64,000 nucleotides of DNA from Pseudomonas cannabina. GTDB lineage: Bacteria; Pseudomonadota; Gammaproteobacteria; Pseudomonadales; Pseudomonadaceae. The notes under the pieces were generated by a model. The model made no database searches. It worked only from the letters and a program-made list of their open reading frames with translations, and was not told the origin of the DNA. This document shows, piece after piece, positions 26,818 through 62,866 of this stretch; within the stretch, counting starts at the first letter, position 1, and each line of letters begins with the position of its first letter. Location: the NCBI RefSeq assembly GCF_900100365.1, contig NZ_FNKU01000001.1, positions 62,001-126,000 of the forward strand, given 5' to 3'. The position numbers and the translations under genes are program-made.

Positions 26818-28095
26818 TCAAGGCAACTGATCATCCGGCTTGTTGTTCTTCCAGCTGTCGTGCCCCGGCAAAATCAGGTTCAGGATGATCGCGGTGACGG
26901 CGCACAGGGCGATGCCTTTCAGGCCGAAGTCGTTCGGGCCGTTGCCGGTGCCGATCAGTACGCCGCCAATGCCGAACACCAGCGTTACCGAGACGATTAC
27001 CAGATTGCGTGCTTCGGCCAGATCGATCTTGTGGCGGATCAGCGTGTTCATGCCCACTGCTGCAATCGAGCCGAACAACAGGCACAGAATCCCGCCCATT
27101 ACCGGCACGGGAATGCTTTGCAGCAGCGCGCCGAACTTGCCGATGAATGCCAGGGTGATCGCAAAAAACGACGCCCAGATCATGATTTGCGGGTTGTAGT
27201 TCTTGGTCAGCATCACCGCGCCAGTGACTTCGGCGTAGGTGGTGTTCGGTGGGCCACCAAACAGGCCGGCGGCTGTGGTGGCAATGCCATCGCCAAACAG
27301 CGTGCGGTGCAGGCCAGGCTTTTTCAGGTAGTCGCGTCCGGTCACGCTGCCGACCGCAATTACGCCACCAATGTGCTCGATGGCCGGTGCCAGTGCCACC
27401 GGGACGATGAACAGAATCGCCTGCCAGTTGAATTCCGGTGCGGTGAAATGCGGAATGGCCAGCCAGGCCGCGTCGGCGATCTTCTGGGTATCAACCACGC
27501 CGAAGTAGAATAACAAAGCAAACCCCACCAGCACACCCGAGATGATCGGCACCAGACGGAAAATGCCTTTACCGAACACCGCCACGATCAAGGTCGTCAG
27601 CAATGCAGGCATCGAGATCAGCATGGCGGTCTGATAAGGAATCAGCTGCGCGCCATCCCCTGTCTTGCCCATCGCCATGTTGGCCGCAATCGGCGCCATG
27701 GCCAGACCGATCGAGATGATCACCGGCCCGATCACCACCGGCGGCAGCAAACGGTCGATAAACCCTGTGCCTTTGATCTTCACGGCCAGGCCAAGAAAAG
27801 TGTAAACGAAGCCCGCTGCCATCACGCCGCCCATGGTCGCGGCGAGGCCGAACTGGCCCTTTGCGAGAATGATCGGGGTGATGAATGCGAAGCTCGAAGC
27901 CAGAAACACCGGCACCTGACGGCCCGTGACAATCTGGAACAACAGCGTGCCGAGGCCTGCGGTAAACAGCGCGACGTTAGGATCGAGCCCGGTAATCAAC
28001 GGCATCAGCACCAGTGCGCCGAACGCCACGAAGAGCATTTGTGCACCGGAAAGGATCGTGCGCCACAGTGGATCGTTGAACTCCTGCTGCGTCAT
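26818..28095 (-). CDS. uraA: Uracil permease (NCS2 family)
   Basis: The 425-residue inner-membrane protein starts MTQQEFNDPLWRTILSGAQM. It carries the family signature around GGPPNTTYAEVTGAVMLTK and IEHIGGVIAVGSVTGRDY, with 12-14 hydrophobic segments. ATG 28095 lies 4 bases after the upp stop with AGGA upstream; the in-frame ATG at 28143 overlaps upp and is rejected. It imports uracil for the adjacent salvage enzyme. Confidence 0.95.
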   Translation of the reverse strand: MTQQEFNDPLWRTILSGAQMLFVAFGALVLMPLITGLDPNVALFTAGLGTLLFQIVTGRQVPVFLASSFAFITPIILAKGQFGLAATMGGVMAAGFVYTFLGLAVKIKGTGFIDRLLPPVVIGPVIISIGLAMAPIAANMAMGKTGDGAQLIPYQTAMLISMPALLTTLIVAVFGKGIFRLVPIISGVLVGFALLFYFGVVDTQKIADAAWLAIPHFTAPEFNWQAILFIVPVALAPAIEHIGGVIAVGSVTGRDYLKKPGLHRTLFGDGIATTAAGLFGGPPNTTYAEVTGAVMLTKNYNPQIMIWASFFAITLAFIGKFGALLQSIPVPVMGGILCLLFGSIAAVGMNTLIRHKIDLAEARNLVIVSVTLVFGIGGVLIGTGNGPNDFGLKGIALCAVTAIILNLILPGHDSWKNNKPDDQLP

Positions 28096-28099
28096 CGGG

Positions 28100-28738
28100 T
28101 TACGCGTCCTTCTGCTTGGTGCCGAAAATCTTGTCACCGGCATCGCCCAGGCCCGGAATGATGTAGCCGTGTTCGTTCAGACGCTCGTCGATGGAGGCGG
28201 TGTAGATCATCACATCCGGGTGGGCCTTTTCCACCGCAGCGATACCTTCCGGTGCCGCGACCAGCACCATGGCGCGGATTTCCTTGCAGCCTGCTTTCTT
28301 GAGCAGGTCGATGGTCGCAACCATAGAGCTGCCGGTGGCCAGCATCGGGTCAATGATCATGGCCAGACGCTCGTCGATCTCTGGAACCAGCTTCTCCAGA
28401 TACGTGTGCGCTTGCAGGGTTTCTTCATTGCGGGCCACGCCCACGGCACTGACCTTGGCGCCTGGAATCAGGCTGAGCACGCCGTCGAGCATGCCGATAC
28501 CGGCGCGCAGGATCGGCACAACGGTAATTTTCTTGCCGGCAATTTTCTCGACCGACACCGTACCGGCCCACCCCTGAATATCGTAGTTTTCCAGGGTAAG
28601 GTCAGCCGTCGCTTCATAAGTCAGCAGCGCACCAACTTCCTGAGCCAGCTCACGGAAATTCTTGGTGCTGATGTCGGCGCGGCGCATCAGACCGAGCTTG
28701 TGGCGGATCAGCGGGTGACGGATTTCACGAATGGGCAT
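28100..28738 (-). CDS. upp: Uracil phosphoribosyltransferase
   Basis: Upp makes UMP from uracil and PRPP. The 212-residue protein has the PRPP-binding motif [20 protein letters not shown], and the uracil-binding [12 protein letters not shown] end. It is the promoter-proximal gene of a upp-uraA operon. Confidence 0.97.
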
Positions 28739-53392: not shown

Positions 53393-53947
53393 TCAGACCA
53401 CTGCCGGTGTGCCTGGCAGGCTGTGGTATCGGCGGCCGAAATAAACCAGTGCCTCGGTTTCGCTCTGGTGCCGGATATCCACGACTTCGCAAAACAGAAT
53501 GTCATGCGTGCCGACGCTCACGGACCGGGTCATCTGACAGTCGAGGGCCAGTTTTGCGCCGTCCAGTATGGGCGAGCCGGTGACACCGCTGAGCCACTGG
53601 CCTGCAGCAAAACGCTCCTGCTGTGTGGTCTTGCCGCCGAACAGGTTGGACAGGGCCTGTTGACTGTTATCCAGCGTGTTGACGCACAGCGTGCCATTGC
53701 CGATGAAGGTGTCGTAAACCGACGCCGAGCGGTTGATGCAGACCAGTAAGGTGGGGGGTTGATCCGTCACGCTGCACACGGCGGTGGCGGTAAACCCGGC
53801 GCGTCCGCCGGGGCCATCGGTGGTGATGACGTTGACCGCTGCCGCCAGGCTGGACATCGCATCGCGAAAGGCCAGTTGGCTGACCGCTGCACTGTCGGCG
53901 GGCAAAATGGGGCTGTTCGGGTTTAAGGGTTGAGTCTGGGTGCGCAT
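53393..53947 (-). CDS. rutF: Rut pathway flavin reductase RutF
   Basis: RutF supplies reduced FMN to the RutA monooxygenase, using NADH. The 184-residue protein has the flavin-reductase-domain features [43 protein letters not shown] and a SLPGTP end. ATG 53947 has AAAGGA upstream. It follows rutD after 27 bases. RutE, normally encoded between or beside these genes, is missing. Confidence 0.93.
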
Positions 53948-53974
53948 GGCAAGAGTCCTTTCAGGAATAGGCAT

Positions 53975-54754
53975 TCAGGAGCGAGCGTCGAGAAAATCGA
54001 GCACCGCGCGCCGAAACGGCGGTGGGTCGCTGATGCTGGAGGCATGGCCGCCGTAGTCCAGCAATTCCAGCCTGGCATTCGGCAACGTTTCGGCCAGATG
54101 CAGCGATTGCTGCCAGGGCACCAGCATGTCATCGCGGTTGGCAATCAACAGCGTCGGTGTGTCGATCTGGCTCAGTTGCGCTTCGATGTCGAAGCTTTCC
54201 AGCGCATTGATACGCCGCAGGAGGTTGTCGGTGTCCGGGAAATGCGCCAGCGCATGGGCTTCATCATCGGCCAGGCGGGCGCTGTTGGCGGCGATCCAGT
54301 CAGCGGGATAAAGAAACAGCGCCTGTGCTTGCACATAAGCCTGCGGCCCGCTGTTCAACAGCAGGTGCTTGCGAATGGAAAAACAGCGCGCGCTGTGCGG
54401 GTTCGGGCTGCTCCAGGCGTTAATCAGGATCTGGCGTTGCAGCAAGTCAGGACGCAGCAGCGCCAGCTCCAGGCCGACCAGCCCGCCCAGTGCATGGCCC
54501 ATGAAATCACAACGCTGGATGCCTAGCGTGTCGAGCAGGGTCAGCAGTTCGACGGCCATGTGGCGGATCGAGTAATCCGGCGGCAGCACTGCAGGGCTGC
54601 GCCGGGTCCCTGCGTGATCGTAGACCAGTACGTCATGGTCGCGGGTCAGCACGGCCAGGTCATCGGCCCAGTAACGGCTGGACCCGCCCAACCCGGAACT
54701 GAGCACCAGCAGCGGCGCATCGGCATGCTGACAGCGATGGATTTCATGGAACAT
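53975..54754 (-). CDS. rutD: Putative aminoacrylate hydrolase RutD
   Basis: This alpha/beta hydrolase of 259 residues promotes breakdown of aminoacrylate or carbamate in the Rut pathway. It has LVLSSGLGGSSRYWADDL, the nucleophile-elbow region MGHALGGLVGLELA (GHALGG instead of GxSxG) and a C-terminal His in YGGHASSISDP. ATG 54754 has GGAGAA 7 bases upstream. Replacement of Ser by Ala at the elbow is worth noting and may be normal for RutD. Confidence 0.9.
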   Translation of the reverse strand: MFHEIHRCQHADAPLLVLSSGLGGSSRYWADDLAVLTRDHDVLVYDHAGTRRSPAVLPPDYSIRHMAVELLTLLDTLGIQRCDFMGHALGGLVGLELALLRPDLLQRQILINAWSSPNPHSARCFSIRKHLLLNSGPQAYVQAQALFLYPADWIAANSARLADDEAHALAHFPDTDNLLRRINALESFDIEAQLSQIDTPTLLIANRDDMLVPWQQSLHLAETLPNARLELLDYGGHASSISDPPPFRRAVLDFLDARS

Positions 54755-54786
54755 GCGCGTTCTCCGAAACGGTTTGAGATCAGTGC

Positions 54787-55170
54787 TCAGCCGATATGGG
54801 CGATGCTGGCGATTTCGATCAGGGCTTCGGGTTTCACCAGGCCGCACTGGATGCAATAACGGGCCGGTTTCTCGCCCGCGAAATACTCGGCGTACACCTC
54901 GTTGACCTTGGCGTAGTCAGCCCAGTCGCGAATCATGATCATGTTGAACGTCACATCGTCCAACGTACCGCCAGCGGTTTCGACCACGCTTTTGATGGTC
55001 TCCAGTACGTGGCGGGTCTGTGCGCTGGCGTCACCGACGTGCACCACGTTGTTGTCCTTGTCGAACGGCAGGGTGCCTGAGACGTAGAGCACGCCGTCGG
55101 CCATGGAGCCCGGCACGAACGGGGCGATGGGCTTGGTGGTGCCGGCAGGAATGATCGCTTTCTTGGTCAT
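54787..55170 (-). CDS. rutC: 3-aminoacrylate deaminase RutC (RidA family)
   Basis: The 127-residue protein begins [21 protein letters not shown]. It has the RidA core [43 protein letters not shown] and the Arg-Cys-like [18 protein letters not shown]. It deaminates the aminoacrylate released by RutB. AGGA lies 7 bases before ATG 55170, and the spacing to both neighbours is short, as in an operon. Confidence 0.94.
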
Positions 55171-55180
55171 GCTGATGTCC

Positions 55181-55920
55181 TCACGAAGTGTGCCCGACAG
55201 GGGCGAAAGTGGTGCAGAAGTCATCGACGCTGGAGACCCAGCCGAAGAAGGTTTCGATGTTGAACAACGCGGCTTGCTGCGCGAATTCCGGGCCTGCCTG
55301 ATGGGTGGCATCGGCCAGCACCACGCCGAAATATTCCAGGTGGAAGCCGTCGCGCAAGGTCGACTCGACGCAGACGTTGGTGGCAATGCCGGTGAACACC
55401 AGATTGCGAATGCCGCGGCTGCGCAGCACGCTGTCGAAGCTGGAATTGAAGAAACCGCTGTAGCGTGTTTTCGGTACCACGATGTCGCCGGGCTCGGGCT
55501 TCAGTTCGTCGACCAGTTGATAGTCCCAGCCGCCCTTGGCGAGTAACTGGCCTTCGAGTTCCGGGCGCTTGCGCATGGTTTTCAGGGCGTTGGACTTGTG
55601 CCAGTTAGGCGAGCCGGGGCCACCGGCTTCGACATAGGCCGGGTCCCAGCCGTTCTGGAAAAAATCACCGGAATACCCGCCGCGCGCGCCGCAGCGCAGG
55701 CCTTCTTGATGTTGGCGATGACCGGCCCGGTGCTGCTGACATCGAACCCGGCCAGGTCCAGATAGCCACCCGGCGATGCGTAGGCATTCTGCATGTCGAC
55801 CACCACCAGCGCCGTTTCGCCGAGCTTCATGCGCAGCGCTTCCGGACGCGCAGGCAACTCGCGTGCAGGTTGCTGATCGAGCGGCAGGTCGACGCCTGCA
55901 ACGGTTGTCGGAGCATTCAT
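55181..55920 (-). pseudogene. rutB: rutB (ureidoacrylate amidohydrolase) broken by a one-base deletion
   Basis: Two overlapping frames cover one RutB. The first (from ATG 55920, with GGAGG upstream) contains [13 protein letters not shown] and reads correctly to GIPVIF. It then shifts at the A6 run (T6 on the coding strand) at 55659-55664 and ends near 55582. The second frame resumes [20 protein letters not shown] and runs to 55181 with the catalytic Cys in [11 protein letters not shown]. Adding one T restores a complete isochorismatase-like hydrolase. The defect separates the active-site Asp from the Cys. A sequencing error in the homopolymer, or slippage, are alternatives. Confidence 0.9.
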
Positions 55921-57002
55921 CACACCGCCTCCTTGAGCTGGGTGATGTGCGCGCGGCTGGTCATCAGCGGCTGGATTTTCTGCCCGAAATCTTCGACGCC
56001 TTTCACGAAATCATCGAAGGTCAGCATCACGCCTTGCGTGCCCGGCACGCTGGCGACTTCGTCGAGCATCTTCGCCACGTTGGCCCAGGAGCCCACCAGC
56101 GTGCCCATGTTGATGTTGACCGCCGAGGTCGGGTCGGCCATCTGTCGCAGGTTCGAGCCTGCGCTCTTGTCGGCTGCGCCTTTTTCGCTCAGCCAGGCGA
56201 TGGCCTCCTCGTCGGCGCCTGCCTTGATGTGTTCCCAGCGTGCCCGTGCGGCTTCATCGGTGTCGTCGGCAATGATCATGAACAGTACGCAGGAGGTGAC
56301 GTTGCGCCCGGTCTTTTCGTTGGCTTCGATCAGTTTCTGTGCGGTCGGTGCGAAAGCGATGGGGGTGTTCACGCCCTTGCCGAAGCAGAAGTTGTAATCG
56401 GCATATTGCGCTGAAAACGCCATGCCGGCTTCGCTCTGACCGGCGCAGATCAGTTTCATGTCGGCTTGCGGGCGCGGGCTGACGCGGCAGTCCTGCATGC
56501 TGAAATGCTCGCCCTTGAAGTCACTGCTGCCAGTGGCCCACAGGTCGCGAAGTACCTGCGCGTATTCGGCCAGGTATTCGTAGCGCGTATGGAAAAACTC
56601 GTCGCCGGGCCACAGGCCCATCTGCTCGTATTCGGGCTTCTGCCAGCCGGTCACCAGATTGATCCCGAAGCGTCCGTTGGAGATCGAGTCGATAGTCGAG
56701 GCCATGCGCGCTGCGATGGCGGGCGGGATGGTCAGGGTCGCGACAGTGGCGAACAGCTGGATCTTGCTGGTGACTGCCGCGAGGCCCGCCATCAGCGTGA
56801 AGGATTCCAGGTTGTGCTCCCAGAATTCGGTTTTGCCGCCGAAGCCGCGCAGTTTGATCATCGATAATGCAAAGTCGAAGCCGTAGCCTTCGGCTTTCTG
56901 CACGATCTGCTTGTTCAGCTCGAAAGTCGGCATGTATTGCGGCGCGTTGCTGGAAATCAGCCAGCCGTTATTGCCAATGGGGATGAAGATACCGATGTCC
57001 AT
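55920..57002 (-). CDS. rutA: Pyrimidine monooxygenase RutA
   Basis: RutA opens the uracil or thymine ring with FMNH2 and O2 to give ureidoacrylate peracid. The 360-residue luciferase-like protein starts [17 protein letters not shown]. It has [17 protein letters not shown] [32 protein letters not shown] and [17 protein letters not shown]. It is the first gene of the rut operon; its stop overlaps the rutB start (TGATG). A sigma-54-type promoter and NtrC and RutR-type sites lie upstream. Confidence 0.97.
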
Positions 57003-57078: not shown

Positions 57079-57094
57079 TGCATTTAGCGGGCCA
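57079..57094 (-). promoter_or_regulatory. Predicted sigma-54 promoter of rutA
   Basis: On the minus strand TGGCCCGCTAAATGCA has GG and GC at the strict -24/-12 spacing. It matches TGGCACG-N4-TTGCA except at two positions. It is about 77 bases from the rutA ATG, with an NtrC-type site upstream. Confidence 0.75.
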
Positions 57095-57147
57095 TATTTT
57101 TTTGTTGTTTTTATTCAATGGGTTAAGAGTTTATTCCGTCTGTTCCA

Positions 57148-57159
57148 GACCAATTGGTC
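57148..57159. promoter_or_regulatory. RutR operator
   Basis: GACCAATTGGTC is a perfect 12-base palindrome matching the core of the E. coli RutR consensus TTGACCANNTGGTCAA. It lies between the divergent rutA and rutR genes. Confidence 0.85.
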
Positions 57160-57168
57160 CGAATAAGA

Positions 57169-57183
57169 GCACTTGGTTTGTGC
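57169..57183. promoter_or_regulatory. NtrC-type site upstream of rutA
   Basis: GCAC-TTGGTTT-GTGC keeps the GCAC-N7-GTGC dyad of NtrC enhancers. It is 75 bases upstream of the -24 element and centred 22.5 bp from the RutR palindrome. Confidence 0.75.
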
Positions 57184-57285
57184 AGCGCGCACGCTGATAG
57201 GGCAGGCCGGGCACGGCGCCTGATCCGTATCGACAAAACAGCTGCGCCCGTTAAGATGCCCTCTCATTTCGGCATCACTGGATGG

Positions 57286-58014
57286 ATGTGCGTGAACAAG
57301 AAACTTCCTGCGGCTGAGCCTGCGAGCAAGCGTGTACGCAAGGTCAAACCGGAAACCGTGGCCAAGACCACCCGCGAGCCCAGCGCCGACTCGTTGAAAC
57401 GACGCATGCGTCTGATGGAAGGCAAGCGCACATTGATTCTCGATGCGGCGCTGGAGATATTTTCCCGCTACGGCGTGCATGGCAGCAGTCTGGATCAGGT
57501 GGCGAGCCTGGCGGACGTTTCCAAGACCAACCTGCTGTATTACTTCAGCAGCAAGGACGATCTGTACCTGAATGTGCTGCGTCAACTGCTTGAAGTCTGG
57601 CTAAGCCCGCTGGTGCATTTCACTGCCGACAAAGAGCCGGTGCAGGCCATCGGCGCGTACCTCAAGGCCAAGCTGGAAATGTCCCGCGACCATCCGGCCG
57701 AGTCGCGCCTGTTCTGTATGGAGGTGATGCAGGGCGCGCCGTTGATTCATGGCGAGTTGCAGCATCCGTTGCGCGATACCGTGGAAGCCAAGGTGGCCGT
57801 GATCCAGCACTGGATCGACAGCGGACAGCTGGCGCCGATCAACCCGCACCATCTGATTTTCTCGCTGTGGGCGACCACCCAGCATTACGCGGACTTCCGC
57901 ACCCAGGTCGAGGCCGTCACCGGCAAGACACTGGACGACCCGGCGTTTTTCGAAGAAGTGCTGGCCAGCCTGCGCAGCATGATTCTGGACGGCATCCTGC
58001 CGCGTAATGGCTGA
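57286..58014 (+). CDS. rutR: TetR-family pyrimidine-utilisation regulator RutR
   Basis: The 242-residue protein has a basic, disordered N-terminal tail. The TetR helix-turn-helix follows (LILDAALEIFSRYGVHGSSLDQVA, then SLADVSKTNLLYYFSSKDDLYLNVL) and the RutR ligand domain with PAESRLFCMEVMQGAPLIHGEL. E. coli RutR binds uracil and thymine and releases DNA. ATG 57286 (MCVNKK) is used; ATG 57256 is an in-frame alternative without a better site. Confidence 0.93.
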   Translation: MCVNKKLPAAEPASKRVRKVKPETVAKTTREPSADSLKRRMRLMEGKRTLILDAALEIFSRYGVHGSSLDQVASLADVSKTNLLYYFSSKDDLYLNVLRQLLEVWLSPLVHFTADKEPVQAIGAYLKAKLEMSRDHPAESRLFCMEVMQGAPLIHGELQHPLRDTVEAKVAVIQHWIDSGQLAPINPHHLIFSLWATTQHYADFRTQVEAVTGKTLDDPAFFEEVLASLRSMILDGILPRNG

Positions 58015-58069
58015 ACCCCATGCCTGTTTTTGACTGGCGCACTCAGGAGGCGCAGCGCCGCAGAAGGAT

Positions 58070-58084
58070 GCACAAACCAAGTGC
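58070..58084. promoter_or_regulatory. NtrC-type site upstream of the nucleoside-type ABC operon
   Basis: GCAC-AAACCAA-GTGC is a perfect GCAC-N7-GTGC dyad. A weaker copy, GCAC-TCAGGAG-GCGC at 58039-58053, is centred 31 bp further upstream, the spacing of paired NtrC enhancer sites. Confidence 0.75.
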
Positions 58085-58093
58085 TCTGATTCA

Positions 58094-58105
58094 GACCATT
58101 TGATC
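58094..58105. promoter_or_regulatory. RutR-like operator upstream of the nucleoside-type ABC operon
   Basis: GACCATTTGATC matches GACCA-NN-TGGTC with one difference. It is centred 22.5 bp from the NtrC-type site, exactly as in front of rutA. Confidence 0.7.
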
Positions 58106-58160
58106 TGTTCTCGGCTGTGCTATCGAGTCAGGTCATTGTTCCATAGCGTTTTCCTGCTAG

Positions 58161-58176
58161 TGGCATGGATGCTGCT
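58161..58176 (+). promoter_or_regulatory. Predicted sigma-54 promoter of the nucleoside-type ABC operon
   Basis: TGGCATGGATGCTGCT has GG and GC at the correct -24/-12 spacing, with TGGCAT for TGGCAC and CTGC for TTGC. It lies 60 bases before the ATG of the binding-protein gene. The distance to the RutR-like site is within 2 bp of that at rutA. Confidence 0.7.
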
Positions 58177-58235: not shown

Positions 58236-59327
58236 ATGTACAAGAAACTGTTGCCCGGGACATTGTGTGCGGCCGTCGCGTTCGGGACCGTCGGCCTCGC
58301 TCAGGCTGAGGGGTTGACCCTCAAGGGCCCCGCGAAAATCGCCATGGTCTACATCAGCCCGCGCAATGATGGCGGCTGGACTCAGGCGTTCGATGAGGCA
58401 CGGTTGAAGCTGGAAAAGGATCTGGACACCAAAATCCAGTTCGTCGAAAGCGTTCCCGAAAACGCGGCGGCCATCACGCCAGTGGTCGACCGGCTCATCG
58501 CACGCGGCGCCAACGTTATTATCGGCACTGCTTTCGGCTACTCCGACACGTTCCTCACGCTGGCGAAAAAATACCCTGATGTCGCGTTCCTCAACGGTTC
58601 CGGCACCACCAATGCGGCCAACCTCGAATCGTTTTACGGCCGCACCTATGAAAGCCAGTACTTGTGCGGCATGGCGGCGGGTGCTGCTTCGAAGACCGGC
58701 AAACTGGGCTTCGTCGCGGCCAACCCGTTTGGCCAGGTCAACTGGACCATTAACGCCTACGAACTGGGCGCTCGGCAGATCAACCCGAAAGCCACGGTCA
58801 ACGTGATCTACACCGGCGCATGGAATGATCCGGTCAAGGAACGCGCCGCAACCATGGCGCTGATCGACAATGGCGTGGATGTGGTCGGTCAGCATGTCGA
58901 CAGCCCGACGCCGCAAATTGTCGCCCAGGAGCGCGGCATTCACGGCACCGGTCACCACCGCGACCTGAGCGAGTTCGCACCAAAAGCGACCGTCTGTTCT
59001 TCGTTGTGGGTCTGGTACCGTTTCCTCGGGCCGGAGCTCAAGAAAATCATGGCCGGCAACTGGACGCCTCCGGCCAACGGCGCGTTGCTGTCAATGCAGC
59101 AGGGCGGCACCGATATCAAGCTGACCAGCGACCCGATCATCTCCTCCGAAGATCGCCAGAAAATCGAGGCTGAGCGGGCCGAACTGCTGGCCGGCAAGAA
59201 AATTATCTATAGCGGCCCGCTGGCGGACCGCGATGGCAAGGAGCGTATCGCGGCGGGTCAGCAACTGTCTGATCCCGAGCTGTGGAAAATGGACTGGTTC
59301 GTCGAAGGCGTGAAGACTCAGCAATGA
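58236..59327 (+). CDS. BMP-family ABC transporter substrate-binding protein (nucleoside/purine type)
   Basis: The 363-residue protein has a signal peptide (ending AQAEG) and the Bmp/Med domain, with IAMVYISPRNDGGWTQAFDEA, NVIIGTAFGYSDTFL and DVVGQHVDSPTPQIVAQERG. The family binds nucleosides or nucleobases. No lipobox Cys is present, so it is periplasmic. It is the first gene of a four-gene operon next to the rut cluster, so pyrimidine-type ligands are likely. Confidence 0.92.
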   Translation: MYKKLLPGTLCAAVAFGTVGLAQAEGLTLKGPAKIAMVYISPRNDGGWTQAFDEARLKLEKDLDTKIQFVESVPENAAAITPVVDRLIARGANVIIGTAFGYSDTFLTLAKKYPDVAFLNGSGTTNAANLESFYGRTYESQYLCGMAAGAASKTGKLGFVAANPFGQVNWTINAYELGARQINPKATVNVIYTGAWNDPVKERAATMALIDNGVDVVGQHVDSPTPQIVAQERGIHGTGHHRDLSEFAPKATVCSSLWVWYRFLGPELKKIMAGNWTPPANGALLSMQQGGTDIKLTSDPIISSEDRQKIEAERAELLAGKKIIYSGPLADRDGKERIAAGQQLSDPELWKMDWFVEGVKTQQ

Positions 59328-60838
59328 GTCAGGTCAATGCGCTGCAACTCACGGGCATCAGCAAATCGTTCGATGGCTTCAAAGCGCTGATCGACGCCGA
59401 CTTCACTGCGTATTGGGGTGAAGTGCATGCGCTGCTGGGCGAAAACGGCGCGGGCAAGTCTTCACTGATGAACATCGCGGCCGGGCTTTATGCGCCGGAA
59501 ACCGGCACGTTGCTGGTCGATGACAACCCGGTGCAGCTCAGCGGCCCGAAGGACGCCAGCCGCTACCGGATCGGCATGGTTCATCAGCATTTCAAGCTGG
59601 TGAAACCGTTCACGTTGGCGCAGAACATTCTGTTGGCGCTGCCTGAGCAGCCCGGCGAAGGCAGCTACCGCAAACGCCTTCGTGCGCTGGAGCAGGAGAT
59701 CGTCGGCAAGGCCGCTGAACTGGGGTTTGTGCTCGATCCAAGACGGATCGTCGACAGCCTGTCGGTTGCCGAACAGCAGCGTGTCGAAATTCTCAAGGTG
59801 CTGCTGGCCGGTGCACGGATTCTGATTCTCGACGAACCGACCGCCGTGCTCACCGATCAGGAAGCCGAGCGTCTGTTGCTCACGGTGCAAGCCTTTGCCC
59901 GGCAAGGCGCGGCGGTGATCCTGGTGACGCACAAGATGGCTGACGTCAAACGCTATACCGACCGCGTGACTGTTATGCGCGGCGGGCGCACCGTGCAGAC
60001 CCTTGACCCGACCAGCGTCAGCGTCGCACAACTGGTGCAGTTGACTGTCGGTGAGTCGGTGTCGGTCAGTGAGCGTCAGCCCGCAACACCCGGTGAGGTG
60101 CGTTTGCAGGTGCGGGATTTGCGCAGCGTGGCAGGCAGCGGCGCGCTCAGCGGGGTGAATATGACCCTGCGCGCCGGGCAGATTTACGGCATCGCCGGGG
60201 TCGGCGGCAACGGTCAGGCAGAACTGGCCAATGCGCTGATGGGCTTGCCGCAACCGACCGAGGGCGAGATTCATCTGACGCCGTTCGGTGATCTGCGCAC
60301 TGCGTCGGCCGAGCAGCGTCGCCAGTTGCGCATTGCGTCAATCCCCGCAGACCGCTATGGCGCAGCGCTGGCGGGCTCGCTGTCGGTGGCGGAAAACTTC
60401 GCCATCGGCAATATCCACAGCGGCCAGTACGGCTCGTTCTGGCGGCTCGGTTATCAACGTTTGAAGCAGGACGCGCAGCGCGCGGTCGAGGCGTTCGATG
60501 TGCAGGGCGTGCGTTCTCTCGATCAGAAAGCCGCGCTGTTGTCGGGCGGCAACGCGCAAAAGCTGGTGATTGCCCGTGAATTCAGCCGCGACCCGCAACT
60601 GGTGCTGGTTCACAGCCCGAGCCGCGGCCTGGACGTGCGCGCTACACAAGCGGTGCACGGCCGGCTTCGCGCCGCGCGGGACGCAGGCGCTGCGGTGCTG
60701 GTGATCAGCGAAGACCTCGATGAAGTATTGGCCCTGGCTGACCGTATCGGCGTGATGAACGGCGGGCGTATCGTCGCCGAGTTCGATCATCCCGCCGACC
60801 GTCAGGCGATCGGCAAAGCGATGGTGAGCCATGACTGA
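59324..60838 (+). CDS. ABC transporter ATP-binding protein with two nucleotide-binding domains
   Basis: The 504-residue protein fuses two ATPase domains. The first has Walker A GENGAGKSS and Walker B ILILDEPTAVL, with signature SVAEQQRVEIL. The second has a degenerate Walker A (GVGGNGQAELAN, without Lys), signature LSGGNAQKLVIAREF and LVLVHSPSRGLD in place of a canonical DEP. One-sided degeneracy is usual in this carbohydrate/nucleoside importer class. ATG 59324 overlaps the upstream stop by 4 bases. Confidence 0.93.
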   Translation: MSQVNALQLTGISKSFDGFKALIDADFTAYWGEVHALLGENGAGKSSLMNIAAGLYAPETGTLLVDDNPVQLSGPKDASRYRIGMVHQHFKLVKPFTLAQNILLALPEQPGEGSYRKRLRALEQEIVGKAAELGFVLDPRRIVDSLSVAEQQRVEILKVLLAGARILILDEPTAVLTDQEAERLLLTVQAFARQGAAVILVTHKMADVKRYTDRVTVMRGGRTVQTLDPTSVSVAQLVQLTVGESVSVSERQPATPGEVRLQVRDLRSVAGSGALSGVNMTLRAGQIYGIAGVGGNGQAELANALMGLPQPTEGEIHLTPFGDLRTASAEQRRQLRIASIPADRYGAALAGSLSVAENFAIGNIHSGQYGSFWRLGYQRLKQDAQRAVEAFDVQGVRSLDQKAALLSGGNAQKLVIAREFSRDPQLVLVHSPSRGLDVRATQAVHGRLRAARDAGAAVLVISEDLDEVLALADRIGVMNGGRIVAEFDHPADRQAIGKAMVSHD

Positions 60839-61940
60839 ATTACTGCAACACGCTGTTGCTACGCGCCAGCCCTTACTGACGCGGCGCTACACCCTAGAGC
60901 TTCGCCAGCAGACTGGCTGGCCTTTGCAGGCGATGATCATTGCGCTGGCGTTGCTGGTCGGTCTGGCCATCTGCACGGCGATTCTGATTGCCGCAGGTGT
61001 GCCCGCGGGTGAGCTGCTCAACGAGTTCGTCCTGCAGACGGTCTTCGATGCGCAGAACTTCAAGGCGGTGCTGTTTCAAGCCTCGCCGATGATCATGGTC
61101 GGTCTGGCCGGTTGCATGGCGTTTCGTGCGCGTTTCTGGAACCTGGGGCTGGAAGGCCAGATGATCTGGGGCGCGATTGGCGCCACGGCCATTTCGCTGT
61201 TCCAGGTGGGGCCGGAGTTTCTGCGCCTGCCGCTGATGATGGCAGCAGCGATGGTCTGCGGGATGTTGTGGAGCCTGGGGCCGGTGCTGTTGAAGCTCAA
61301 GTGGCAGGTCAACGAAATCATCTCGACCCTGATGCTCAACTACGTCGCCGCCAACTTCCTGCTGCATCTGGTCTACGGAAGCTGGAAGGACCCGCGAGAC
61401 AACTTCCCCTATTCGCCGGCGTTTCAGGCCTTTGAGCGTCTGCCAGACCTGTTTGCCGGTTATAACGCGGCGATTCTGCTGGCACTGCTGGTCACGGCGC
61501 TGACCTTGTGGTTCATCGGGATTTCCCGCGCGGGCCTGTATTTGCGCTTCGTCGATGCCAACCCTCGGGTAGCCGAAGCCGTGTGCGTGCCGGTGCGCAA
61601 GATGATCATCGGCACCGTGCTGCTGTCTGGCGCGCTGGCCGGGCTGGCGGGTTTCGTCGTGACCTCGGGGCAGGAGGGACGGCTGACCCAGTCGTTCTAT
61701 CAGGGCTACGGGTTCTCCGGAATTCTCATTGCCTTTCTGGCCCGCAATAACCCGGTCGCCGCGACCATCGTTGCATTGTTGATTGCCATGCTCTTCGTGG
61801 CAGGGCGCAATTTGCAGGTCTTTTATCAGATTCCGTTTTCGATGGTGCAACTGATCCAGGCGATTCTGGTGATCTGTGTGGCGTCGTCCGACTTTTTCAT
61901 CCGCCATCGCCTGCGACGCATTCAGGCAGGAGAACGTTGA
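60831..61940 (+). CDS. Nucleoside-type ABC transporter permease 1
   Basis: The 369-residue membrane protein has eight to ten hydrophobic segments and the BPD_transp_2 pattern FRARFWNLGLEGQMIWGAI and WQVNEIISTLMLNYVAANFL. It overlaps the ATPase gene by 8 bases and abuts permease 2 with a 1-base overlap (TGATG). Confidence 0.93.
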   Translation: MTELLQHAVATRQPLLTRRYTLELRQQTGWPLQAMIIALALLVGLAICTAILIAAGVPAGELLNEFVLQTVFDAQNFKAVLFQASPMIMVGLAGCMAFRARFWNLGLEGQMIWGAIGATAISLFQVGPEFLRLPLMMAAAMVCGMLWSLGPVLLKLKWQVNEIISTLMLNYVAANFLLHLVYGSWKDPRDNFPYSPAFQAFERLPDLFAGYNAAILLALLVTALTLWFIGISRAGLYLRFVDANPRVAEAVCVPVRKMIIGTVLLSGALAGLAGFVVTSGQEGRLTQSFYQGYGFSGILIAFLARNNPVAATIVALLIAMLFVAGRNLQVFYQIPFSMVQLIQAILVICVASSDFFIRHRLRRIQAGER

Positions 61941-62866
61941 TGGAGCTGATTTCCCACTGGCTGGGCAGTGCGCCGGATTTCGCTGTGCCATTCGCGCTGG
62001 CTGCGCTGGGCCTGATCCTGATCGAGCGCAGCGGTGTGCTGGCGCTGGGGGTGGAAGGGCTGATGCTGGTCGGTGCGCTGGCCGGCATCGGCATGCAGTT
62101 GAGCGTCGGGTCGCCGGGGTTATCCCTGCTGGCGTCGATGGCAGCGGCTGGCGTGGTGTCGTTGTTGTTCGCGCTGATGGTGCTGGTGTTGCGGATCAAT
62201 CAGGTGATTGCCGGGCTGGCGCTGGTGTTCTTTTGTCAGGGGCTGACCGGGCTGCTCGGCACGTTGCTGGGCTGGACCAATCGCCCGGTCAGCGGCCTGT
62301 CGGCGGTCGAGTTGTGGCCGTTGTCCGAGCTGCCAGTGATCGGCAAGGTGTTCGTGCAGAATCCGATTGTGTACCTGACGGTGGTGATCTTCATCGCGGT
62401 GGTCTGGCTGCTGAAGCGCACGCGCACCGGGTTGCGTCTGCGCGCGGTGGGCGAAAATCCGCAGGCCGCAGACGCCGCAGGTATTTCCGTGCCGGGTTAT
62501 CGGCTGGCAGCAATTGTCGCGGGGTCGGCGTTGATGGGGCTGGCAGGTGGTTTCATCGCCGTGCTGAGCACCAAAATGTGGATTGCGGACATGACCGGCG
62601 GACGCGGCTGGATCGCGGTGTCGCTGGTGATCTTTGCGCGCTGGTCACCCTGGCGTGCATTGGCCGGTGCCTTGTTGTTCGGCGGCATCGAAGCGCTGAT
62701 CCCGCAACTGGCGGCGACCGGTGTGCGTCTGCCTCAGTACTTCGTGCTGATGACACCCTATGCCGTCACGCTGTTGGTGATGGTCTGGGTAGCCAGTGGC
62801 AAGCGCCAGTCTACGAGCCAGCCGGGTGCGCTGGGTGAGCCTTATATTCGCGAGGAACGACGCTGA
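61940..62866 (+). CDS. Nucleoside-type ABC transporter permease 2
   Basis: The 308-residue membrane protein starts MELISHWLGSAPDFAVPFALAAL. It carries RSGVLALGVEGLMLVGAL and the conserved RTGLRLRAVGENPQAADAAGI loop that couples to the ATPase. AGGAGAAC precedes ATG 61940. With permease 1 it forms the membrane heterodimer. Confidence 0.93.
   Translation: MELISHWLGSAPDFAVPFALAALGLILIERSGVLALGVEGLMLVGALAGIGMQLSVGSPGLSLLASMAAAGVVSLLFALMVLVLRINQVIAGLALVFFCQGLTGLLGTLLGWTNRPVSGLSAVELWPLSELPVIGKVFVQNPIVYLTVVIFIAVVWLLKRTRTGLRLRAVGENPQAADAAGISVPGYRLAAIVAGSALMGLAGGFIAVLSTKMWIADMTGGRGWIAVSLVIFARWSPWRALAGALLFGGIEALIPQLAATGVRLPQYFVLMTPYAVTLLVMVWVASGKRQSTSQPGALGEPYIREERR

What the first reader, a model, noticed from the sequence alone, without database searches (positions are those of the whole stretch)
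57079..58176. rut operon and neighbouring nucleoside-type ABC operon share an NtrC - RutR - sigma-54 promoter architecture
In front of rutA (minus) I see GCAC-N7-GTGC, then a RutR palindrome (GACCAATTGGTC), then TGGCCCGCTAAATGCA. In front of the BMP-type transporter (plus) I see GCAC-N7-GTGC, then GACCATTTGATC, then TGGCATGGATGCTGCT. The distance between dyad and palindrome centres is 22.5 bp in both. The distance from palindrome centre to the -24 element is 59.5 and 61.5 bp. Three independent motifs at matching spacing are unlikely by chance. RutR repression, or release by uracil, would be combined with nitrogen-limitation activation to control both uptake and degradation of pyrimidines. The ABC transporter would replace the missing RutG. 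RutR regulation of this transporter has not, to my knowledge, been described.
Basis: partly seen in the sequence, partly recalled or inferred. Interest (0 to 1): 0.88.

Follow-up and report, generated by a model that had tools for sequence, protein, structure and literature searches.

The report
Shared promoter for pyrimidine breakdown and uptake
Two neighbouring gene sets in a Pseudomonas, one that breaks down pyrimidine bases and one that looks like a nucleobase importer, carry the same control region built from nitrogen-starvation, uracil-sensing and sigma-54 elements at fixed distances, and it is kept across related bacteria.

Summary
Upstream of rutA and of the BMP-type ABC operon lie an NtrC-type dyad, a RutR box 24 bp further on, and a sigma-54 element 65/67 bp after that. 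Dyad plus box occurs only twice in the 6.39-Mb genome, both here.

Comparison makes it a conserved control region. In 398 family genomes, 91 composites lie in 61 (reversed control: 3). Of 85 distinct non-own ones, 84 sit before rutA (48), BMP (6), or a 2OG-oxygenase gene (30) that is followed by the transporter in 28 of 30.

New details:
- The box differs by operon: TGGTC at 48/48 rutA, TGATC at 36/36 transporter-type sites and at 9/9 Marinobacter transporter promoters.
- The dyad interior holds a second RutR-like site, kept in Marinobacter where the NtrC dyad is lost. This suggests RutR and NtrC compete for the same DNA.
- E. coli rutA has the same 24-bp register.

The binding protein is closest to purine-binding AtzT but its pocket has changed. 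"Replaces RutG" is not established: the window also has a UraA-like permease. RegPrecise may already predict the RutR-transporter link. No experiment was run.

The parts
55920..57002 (-). rutA, pyrimidine monooxygenase, first gene of the rut operon
   Evidence: TIGR03612 RutA 711.9 bits, over cut-off
55181..55923 (-). rutB, split into two frames in this assembly (55582-55923 and 55181-55576)
   Evidence: each piece matches part of TIGR03614 RutB; continuous in 48 of 49 relatives
53393..55170 (-). rutC (ends 54787), rutD (53975-54754), rutF (53393-53974)
   Evidence: TIGR03610, TIGR03611, TIGR03615 over cut-off; rutC and rutD starts inferred from where the model match begins
57079..57094 (-). 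sigma-54 -24/-12 element of rutA, TGGCCCGCTAAATGCA
   Evidence: same kind of element in relatives
57113..57125 (-). candidate IHF site TAACCCATTGAAT (1 mismatch), 31 bp before the -24 T
   Evidence: position kept in relatives, binding untested
57148..57159 (-). RutR box O1 of rutA, GACCAATTGGTC
57167..57178 (-). second RutR-like site O2 (AACCAAGTGCTC, 8 of 10 positions), overlapping the proximal NtrC dyad
57169..57183 (-). proximal NtrC-type dyad of rutA, GCACAAACCAAGTGC
57189..57203 (-). distal NtrC-like dyad of rutA, GCCCTATCAGCGTGC (1 mismatch), 20 bp upstream
   Evidence: same 20-bp offset in 44 of 48 rutA sites of relatives
57286..58014 (+). rutR (ATG 57286 or GTG 57292)
   Evidence: TIGR03613 RutR 384.5 bits, cut-off 368; E. 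coli uracil-pocket residues kept
58039..58053 (+). distal NtrC-like dyad of the transporter operon, GCACTCAGGAGGCGC (1 mismatch), 31 bp upstream
58070..58084 (+). proximal NtrC-type dyad of the transporter operon, GCACAAACCAAGTGC
58075..58086 (+). second RutR-like site O2 of the transporter operon, AACCAAGTGCTC
58094..58105 (+). RutR box O1 of the transporter operon, GACCATTTGATC (transporter class, TGATC)
58161..58176 (+). sigma-54 -24/-12 element of the transporter operon, TGGCATGGATGCTGCT
58236..59327 (+). BMP-type substrate-binding protein, AtzT-like
   Evidence: PF02608; best solved relative 6pi5 AtzT, E 5.5e-64
59324..60838 (+). ABC ATPase
   Evidence: open frame, kept next to BMP in relatives; family named by reading, not scanned; start inferred
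60831..61940 (+). ABC permease 1
   Evidence: PF02653
61937..62866 (+). ABC permease 2
   Evidence: PF02653

Best explanation
Both operons have RutR-gated, NtrC-activated sigma-54 promoters of one conserved design. From far to near: a distal NtrC-like dyad; a proximal NtrC dyad whose interior doubles as a weak RutR site (O2); a strong RutR box (O1) 24 bp from the proximal dyad; often an IHF-like site; then the -24/-12 element 65-69 bp from the start of O1. Taking the -24/-12 element as given, O1 is centred near -86 and the proximal dyad near -109, so RutR should not sit on the polymerase site itself. The likeliest mechanism is anti-activation: RutR bound at O1, and through it at O2, keeps NtrC off the proximal enhancer. 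When uracil (or thymine) is present RutR leaves, and under nitrogen limitation phosphorylated NtrC activates sigma-54 polymerase. The result is an AND gate that turns on pyrimidine breakdown and a probable nucleobase importer together. Shown here: sites, spacing, conservation, gene content. Inferred: binding, the order of events, competition, and the imported base. The confidence is for joint control of both operons; for the competition step alone I would say about 0.55.
For: Unique pair in the genome, control 0. 91 composites in 61 of 398 family genomes, own included, against 3 reversed-pattern hits. The transporter follows the 2OG gene in 28 of 30 (27 complete, one in L039). Box class TGGTC at 48/48 rutA sites and TGATC at 36/36 transporter-type sites, with TGATC and a sigma-54 element at 66-67 bp also at 9/9 Marinobacter transporter promoters. 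Distal dyad at exactly 20 bp in 44/48 rutA and 29/36 transporter-type sites. O2 is the best RutR-like offset in all four sets, and in Marinobacter transporter promoters it persists where the proximal NtrC dyad does not. E. coli rutA has the same 24-bp register; published passages put NtrC sites and a RutR site and RpoN binding at that promoter. RutR pocket residues W77, Y97, W167, Q171, Q179 are all kept.
Against: No binding, transcription-start or mutant data. Sequences are related, so counts are not independent events. O2 is weak (8/10), not seen by eye in the E. coli promoter, and degraded in some Pseudomonadaceae dyads (variants such as GCACAATGCCGGTGC). The 24-bp register fails or is degenerate at 5 of 49 rutA loci outside the window (L048, L050, L054, L056, L057). 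The window's transporter box has one mismatch. One rutA composite (L109) has no acceptable sigma-54 element. The candidate IHF site is weak (2 mismatches) at the window's transporter promoter. Two composites precede no working operon: L137 and the remnant in G152. In this isolate rutB is in two frames and the 2OG gene is interrupted, so the pathway may not work here.
Confidence: 0.8

Rival explanations
1. Same co-control, but RutR represses by hindering DNA looping (or IHF) between enhancer and promoter from O1 alone; the conserved dyad interior is only the NtrC preference of these promoters.
For: O1 sits between enhancer and promoter in every composite. An IHF-like match 31-33 bp before the -24 T, on one strand, is the best match in 67 of 85 promoters, and 50 of 85 have at most 1 mismatch against about 6 in letter shuffles.
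Against: Marinobacter transporter promoters keep AACCAnnCnCTC at -19 after losing GCAC and GTGC, and L048 has a 1-mismatch RutR box exactly there.
Confidence: 0.25
2. Only the rut operon is truly RutR/NtrC controlled; the unit before the transporter is a passive duplicate of the rutA control region (inverted repeat flanking rutR).
For: The two units are a 39-nt inverted repeat, 90% complementary.
Against: Own-genome pairs are no more alike than pairs across genomes (permutation 0.39 and 0.90 in the two groups tested), so recent copying is not seen. The transporter unit has its own class of box, its own sigma-54 element and wide conservation, including genomes where it lies many kilobases from the rutA unit.
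Confidence: 0.05
3. The transporter imports something other than a pyrimidine, for example a purine or an s-triazine-like base, and RutR control reflects general nitrogen scavenging.
For: Closest solved binding protein is AtzT, which binds guanine (0.11 uM) and adenine (2.5 uM) but uracil only at 1600 uM; 3s99 was modelled with adenine.
Against: Of the AtzT side chains that hold guanine, S97, E165, N218 and N220 are A, Q, H and D here; of the nine positions mapped, eight are invariant in 29 of 29 sequences, window included. The operon is RutR-linked, and in relatives it starts with a 2OG enzyme whose best solved match is thymine dioxygenase.
Confidence: 0.3

Closest known systems
E. coli rutA promoter (NtrC / RutR / sigma-54)
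   Same: Divergent rutA-rutR layout; dyad GCAT-N7-GTGC (1 mismatch) 24 bp before a RutR-type box; distal dyad 21 bp further; sigma-54 element TGGCATCCGCTTTGCA. NtrC and RutR sites and RpoN binding at this promoter are in print.
   Different: Box start to -24 T is 78 bp instead of 65-69; no O2 seen; transport gene rutG is inside the operon. Whether E. coli has a second such promoter was not searched.
RutR regulons of RegPrecise (Leyn et al. 2016, PMC5343134)
   Same: Comparative prediction of RutR sites in 68 proteobacterial genomes, 743 target genes (passages seen).
   Different: The passages seen do not mention this transporter, the NtrC-RutR spacing, the box classes or O2; the gene table was not readable here, so overlap is unknown.
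AtzT-type BMP binding proteins (6pi5; 3s99)
   Same: Full-length match; aromatic sandwich of the base kept (Y45 to W, W194 to W).
   Different: Base-edge residues changed; ligand unknown.
Thymine dioxygenase (thymine-7-hydroxylase, 5c3p)
   Same: Best solved match of the 2OG enzyme that heads the operon in relatives, E 9.9e-50.
   Different: An ethylene/succinate-forming enzyme scores almost as well (3.1e-47); activity untested.

Membership tests
RutR | Scores over the curated cut-off of the RutR model | tested here: met
   TIGR03613 384.5 bits, cut-off 368
RutR | Uracil-pocket residues of the E. coli protein | tested here: met
   W77, Y97, W167, Q171, Q179 (named in PMC10891134) all identical
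RutR | Binds GACCANNTGGTC-type boxes, released by uracil | not testable with these tools
   needs protein
NtrC-activated sigma-54 promoter | GG-N10-GC element with TGGC and TGC | tested here: met
   both promoters; 83 of 84 promoters of relatives
NtrC-activated sigma-54 promoter | Tandem NtrC dyads about 100-140 bp upstream | tested here: met
   perfect proximal dyad and 1-mismatch distal dyad in both; the range is recalled
NtrC-activated sigma-54 promoter | ntrC and rpoN in the genome | tested here: met
   TIGR01818 794.6 bits and TIGR02395 514.3 bits, both over cut-off
NtrC-activated sigma-54 promoter | Expression lost without NtrC or RpoN | not testable with these tools
   needs mutants
Rut pathway operon | rutA, B, C, D, F | tested here: inconclusive
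   A, C, D, F over cut-off; rutB in two frames, each a partial match; rutE was not looked for
RutG uracil permease | A PF00860 protein scoring over the RutG model | tested here: not met
   three PF00860 places genome-wide; two score 273.3 and 80.8 bits against 758.65, the third has no match at E <= 1e-20
UraA uracil permease (window 26818-28143) | Scores over the uracil permease equivalog | tested here: not met
   342.6 bits against 477, although the best solved match is UraA, E 3.5e-83, and the frame overlaps a upp-like frame (named by eye)
AtzT-type purine-binding BMP | Guanine-contacting side chains | tested here: not met
   S97, E165, N218, N220 replaced

The most novel reading that the evidence does not exclude
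A bifunctional enhancer element: one 17-bp sequence (GCACAAACCARGTGCTC) is at once an NtrC enhancer and a RutR operator, so a substrate-sensing repressor and the nitrogen activator compete for the same DNA, and a one-base operator code (TGGTC versus TGATC) sets uptake and breakdown at different uracil thresholds. In relatives the transporter operon also carries a bacterial thymine hydroxylase that feeds thymine into the uracil-degrading Rut pathway.
Probability: 0.3. Interest if true: 0.72.

Novelty: new variant of a known kind. Interest (0 to 1): 0.56.

Why it matters
It ties an uncharacterised nucleobase-type ABC importer, and in relatives a possible thymine-type dioxygenase, to pyrimidine catabolism by regulatory logic, which gives a testable substrate and pathway. 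It also offers a natural example of a repressor and an enhancer-binding activator that may share DNA at sigma-54 promoters, with an operator code that separates uptake from breakdown in Pseudomonadaceae and Marinobacter.

Tried and rejected
Concerted evolution of the two units within a genome: tested on 28 genomes holding both, window included; no signal (own mean distance 5.36, cross 5.36 over 18 free positions; permutation 0.39 and 0.90). Other RutR boxes in the genome as further targets: the capped listing shows 13 perfect GACCANNTGGTC places (17 rows, C2 ones on both strands); four on contig C2 share one repeated context, the other eight outside this locus were not followed. RutR composite before the unlinked 2OG gene of syringae-group genomes: none with at most 4 mismatches in the DNA held (L184, L187, L188, L190, L191). 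A sigma-70 promoter for rutR: one 9/12 match at 57230-57257, 0.5 expected, not significant. Alkalilimnicola L050: no RutR box with fewer than 2 mismatches in about 660 bp before its transporter, sigma-54 scanned on one strand only.

My own slips: the first sigma-54 pattern was one base too long and missed both elements, corrected. The first rutB check used too narrow a string and wrongly suggested loss in most relatives, replaced. An earlier count said 66 of 85 for the IHF-like offset; the printed tallies add up to 67.

Literature: 10 searches listed no paper whose title or shown start of abstract links RutR to this transporter. Passages were read only in PMC5343134, PMC8743547, PMC6834077 and PMC10891134; no whole text, no supplement. 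Subscription journals are mostly not in the library.

Full report
What is there. The window lies in a 6,388,314-base genome. Its nearest named relative by RutR is Pseudomonas syringae pv. cilantro, 98% identity. The rut operon runs leftwards from rutA (57002). rutR runs rightwards (57286 or 57292 to 58014). A four-gene ABC operon with a BMP-type binding protein follows at 58236-62866. RutA, C, D, F and R score over their curated cut-offs.

Observation. The dyad-N9-box pattern has two matches in the whole genome, both here, with zero for the reversed pattern. A dyad followed at 62-92 bp by a sigma-54 core has four matches, two of them these, control zero. The two units form a 39-nt, 90% complementary inverted repeat around rutR, 33 of 37 identical over the core.

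Conservation near home. A scan with RutR as query gave 57 loci with names. Upstream of rutA the 24-bp register recurs, with at most 2 mismatches, at 44 of 49 rutA loci outside the window (Pseudomonas, Stutzerimonas, Marinobacter); it fails or is degenerate in L048, L050, L054, L056 and L057. Upstream of BMP all 16 syringae-type loci (L004-L019) and the window carry it; 14 other BMP loci do not carry it directly. In L027, L039 and the nine Marinobacter loci a 2OG-oxygenase gene (a remnant in L046) and a VOC gene precede BMP, and the unit or its RutR box lies before those. L050 showed none. L054 and L055 were not pursued.

Family-wide test. The exact composite GCAC-N7-GTGC-N9-GACCANNTGRTC was sought in 398 genomes of the family: 91 places in 61 genomes, own included, against 3 reversed-pattern hits (91 is the sum of its forward and reverse columns). 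All 89 places outside the own genome lie in loci laid or fetched. Four have the same 220-bp context as another (checked), which leaves 85 distinct. The first recognised gene downstream is rutA in 48, a 2OG-Fe(II) oxygenase in 30, BMP in 6, and none in one (its table shows 87 rows because two places appear a second time, truncated). For the 30 oxygenase places the DNA further on was fetched in 28: 27 have oxygenase, VOC, BMP, ATPase and both permeases in line, and one (G152) has only remnants. Of the two others, G143 (L039) has them as far as its DNA reaches and G251 ends at its contig edge. So the transporter is confirmed in 28 of 30.

In 83 of 84 assigned places the best sigma-54 element has its T 65-69 bp after the box start, although 32-121 was allowed; the exception is L109. 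An order-wide sample of 145 genomes gave the composite in 3, own included; the two others are before rutA.

Two classes of RutR box. Among the distinct family places, rutA sites read GACCAnnTGGTC in 48 of 48 and transporter-type sites (BMP or 2OG first) GACCAnnTGATC in 36 of 36. The search pattern allowed only these two letters, so it could not show others. The scan, which allowed 3 mismatches to the palindrome, agrees: the best rutA box ends in GGTC in 50 of 50, and all 17 BMP boxes that belong to a unit end in TGATC (one, L005, has GACCG on the left). In Marinobacter, outside the family (recalled), all nine transporter-operon promoters have GACCATTTGATC with TGGC-N9-GC at 66-67 bp. A weaker promoter-proximal half at the transporter would release RutR at a lower inducer level, so that uptake starts before breakdown. 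This is inference.

A second RutR-like site inside the NtrC dyad. The proximal dyad interior is nearly fixed (most often GCACAAACC[AG][AG]GTGC) and is usually followed by TC. The 12-mer AACCAAGTGCTC inside it matches the RutR box at 8 of 10 positions, exactly 19 bp before O1. In four sets (44, 35, 8 and 8 distinct sequences) offset 19 is the best RutR-like offset; column-permuted controls reach it at any offset in 0.0005, 0, 0.0015 and 0.0065 of 2000 trials. In three sets a perfect NtrC dyad overlaps (in two of them by construction of the search) and could explain part of this. In the Marinobacter transporter set it cannot: there GCAC and GTGC at the proximal position are not recognisable, the best NtrC-like offset is the distal one (75% of positions), and AACCA..CnCTC stays. 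In Pseudomonas sp. JUb42 (L048) the same position holds CACCAAATGGTC, one mismatch from the palindrome. Against it: the E. coli promoter shows no such site by eye, and several Pseudomonadaceae dyads have lost ACCA.

Other elements. A distal NtrC-like dyad lies exactly 20 bp upstream of the proximal one in 44 of 48 rutA and 29 of 36 transporter-type sites; the window's transporter has it at 31 bp. An IHF-like match (recalled consensus) 31-33 bp before the -24 T, on one strand, is the best match in 67 of 85 promoters; 50 of 85 have at most one mismatch, against about 6 in letter shuffles. One of 86 promoters was dropped there for lack of a sigma-54 element. In the window the match is good at rutA and weak at the transporter.

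Comparison with E. coli. The MG1655 rutA upstream region has GCATGTTTTATGTGC 24 bp before GACCGTTTAGTC, a distal dyad 21 bp further, and TGGCATCCGCTTTGCA 78 bp after the box start. One named position has a chance of 25/65536, with equal bases, of fitting the dyad with at most one mismatch. Published passages put NtrC sites and a RutR site there and call the operon NtrC-dependent under nitrogen limitation (PMC10891134), and list RpoN binding between rutA and rutR (PMC8743547). That the box I mark is the published one is recalled, not read. The rutA half of the finding is therefore a known kind of promoter; the second promoter, the box classes and O2 are the additions.

What the transporter may carry. 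The BMP protein's best solved relative is AtzT (E 5.5e-64), which binds guanine at 0.11 uM, thymine at 620 uM and uracil at 1600 uM (PMC6834077 passages). Mapping its pocket shows the two aromatic residues that sandwich the base as Trp, while S97, E165, N218 and N220 have become A, Q, H and D. Over 29 sequences, window included and fragments left out, eight of nine mapped positions are invariant; the one at E165 varies (Q 23, V 5, P 1). So a flat base is likely and its identity is open. In relatives the operon begins with a 2OG oxygenase whose best solved match is thymine dioxygenase (9.9e-50), closely followed by an ethylene/succinate-forming enzyme (3.1e-47). Thymine to uracil would fit a RutR operon. 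This is a lead, not a test.

This isolate. rutB is in two frames, continuous in 48 of 49 relatives. The 2OG gene is elsewhere on the chromosome and is interrupted by a frame that reads like a transposase (by eye). A sequencing error cannot be excluded for rutB. The conserved control region may serve a pathway that is decaying here. The genome also has three PF00860 permeases, one in the window beside a upp-like frame, so the ABC system need not be the only uracil route.

Verdict. The architecture is real, conserved and very probably functional as joint NtrC/RutR/sigma-54 control of breakdown and uptake. Competition of RutR with NtrC at a shared element is the best mechanism but rests on sequence alone. 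Substrate and experimental proof are missing, and prior prediction in RegPrecise could not be excluded.

Noticed in passing
window 55181-55923: rutB is split into two reading frames in this assembly; relatives have it continuous (48 of 49).
   Followed up: yes
L184 2196-4065 (own genome C1, about 1630695-1632552): The own genome's 2OG-oxygenase gene (first part 81-83% identical to the Stutzerimonas one) is interrupted by a 249-aa frame that reads like a transposase; it lies beside an isochorismatase and a VOC gene, away from rut.
   Followed up: partly
L039 6704-9728; L187, L188, L190: An isochorismatase related to RutB, a thymine-dioxygenase-like 2OG enzyme and a VOC protein occur together, near the RutR-controlled transporter (L039) or unlinked from it (syringae-type genomes); possibly a side pathway for a substituted pyrimidine.
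   Followed up: partly
L197, L199-L202: A second 2OG-oxygenase family (about 37-40% identical) sits next to a second BMP binding protein (about 31-35%) in five loci: the oxygenase-BMP pairing recurs.
   Followed up: no
L072-L075 (own genome contig C2, about 1540, 44769, 103863, 179004): GACCAATTGGTC occurs four times on C2 inside one repeated sequence; apparently not a RutR control site.
   Followed up: partly
window 26818-28738: A upp-like frame and a UraA-like NCS2 permease overlap as a pair, an alternative uracil uptake route in the same window.
   Followed up: yes
L137 1521; L029 5863; L245 51: A Stutzerimonas genome lacking rutA and the 2OG gene near these sites keeps NtrC-RutR units (one degenerate) without sigma-54 elements; in G152 (L245) the unit and its sigma-54 element remain before remnants of the transporter operon.
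   Followed up: partly
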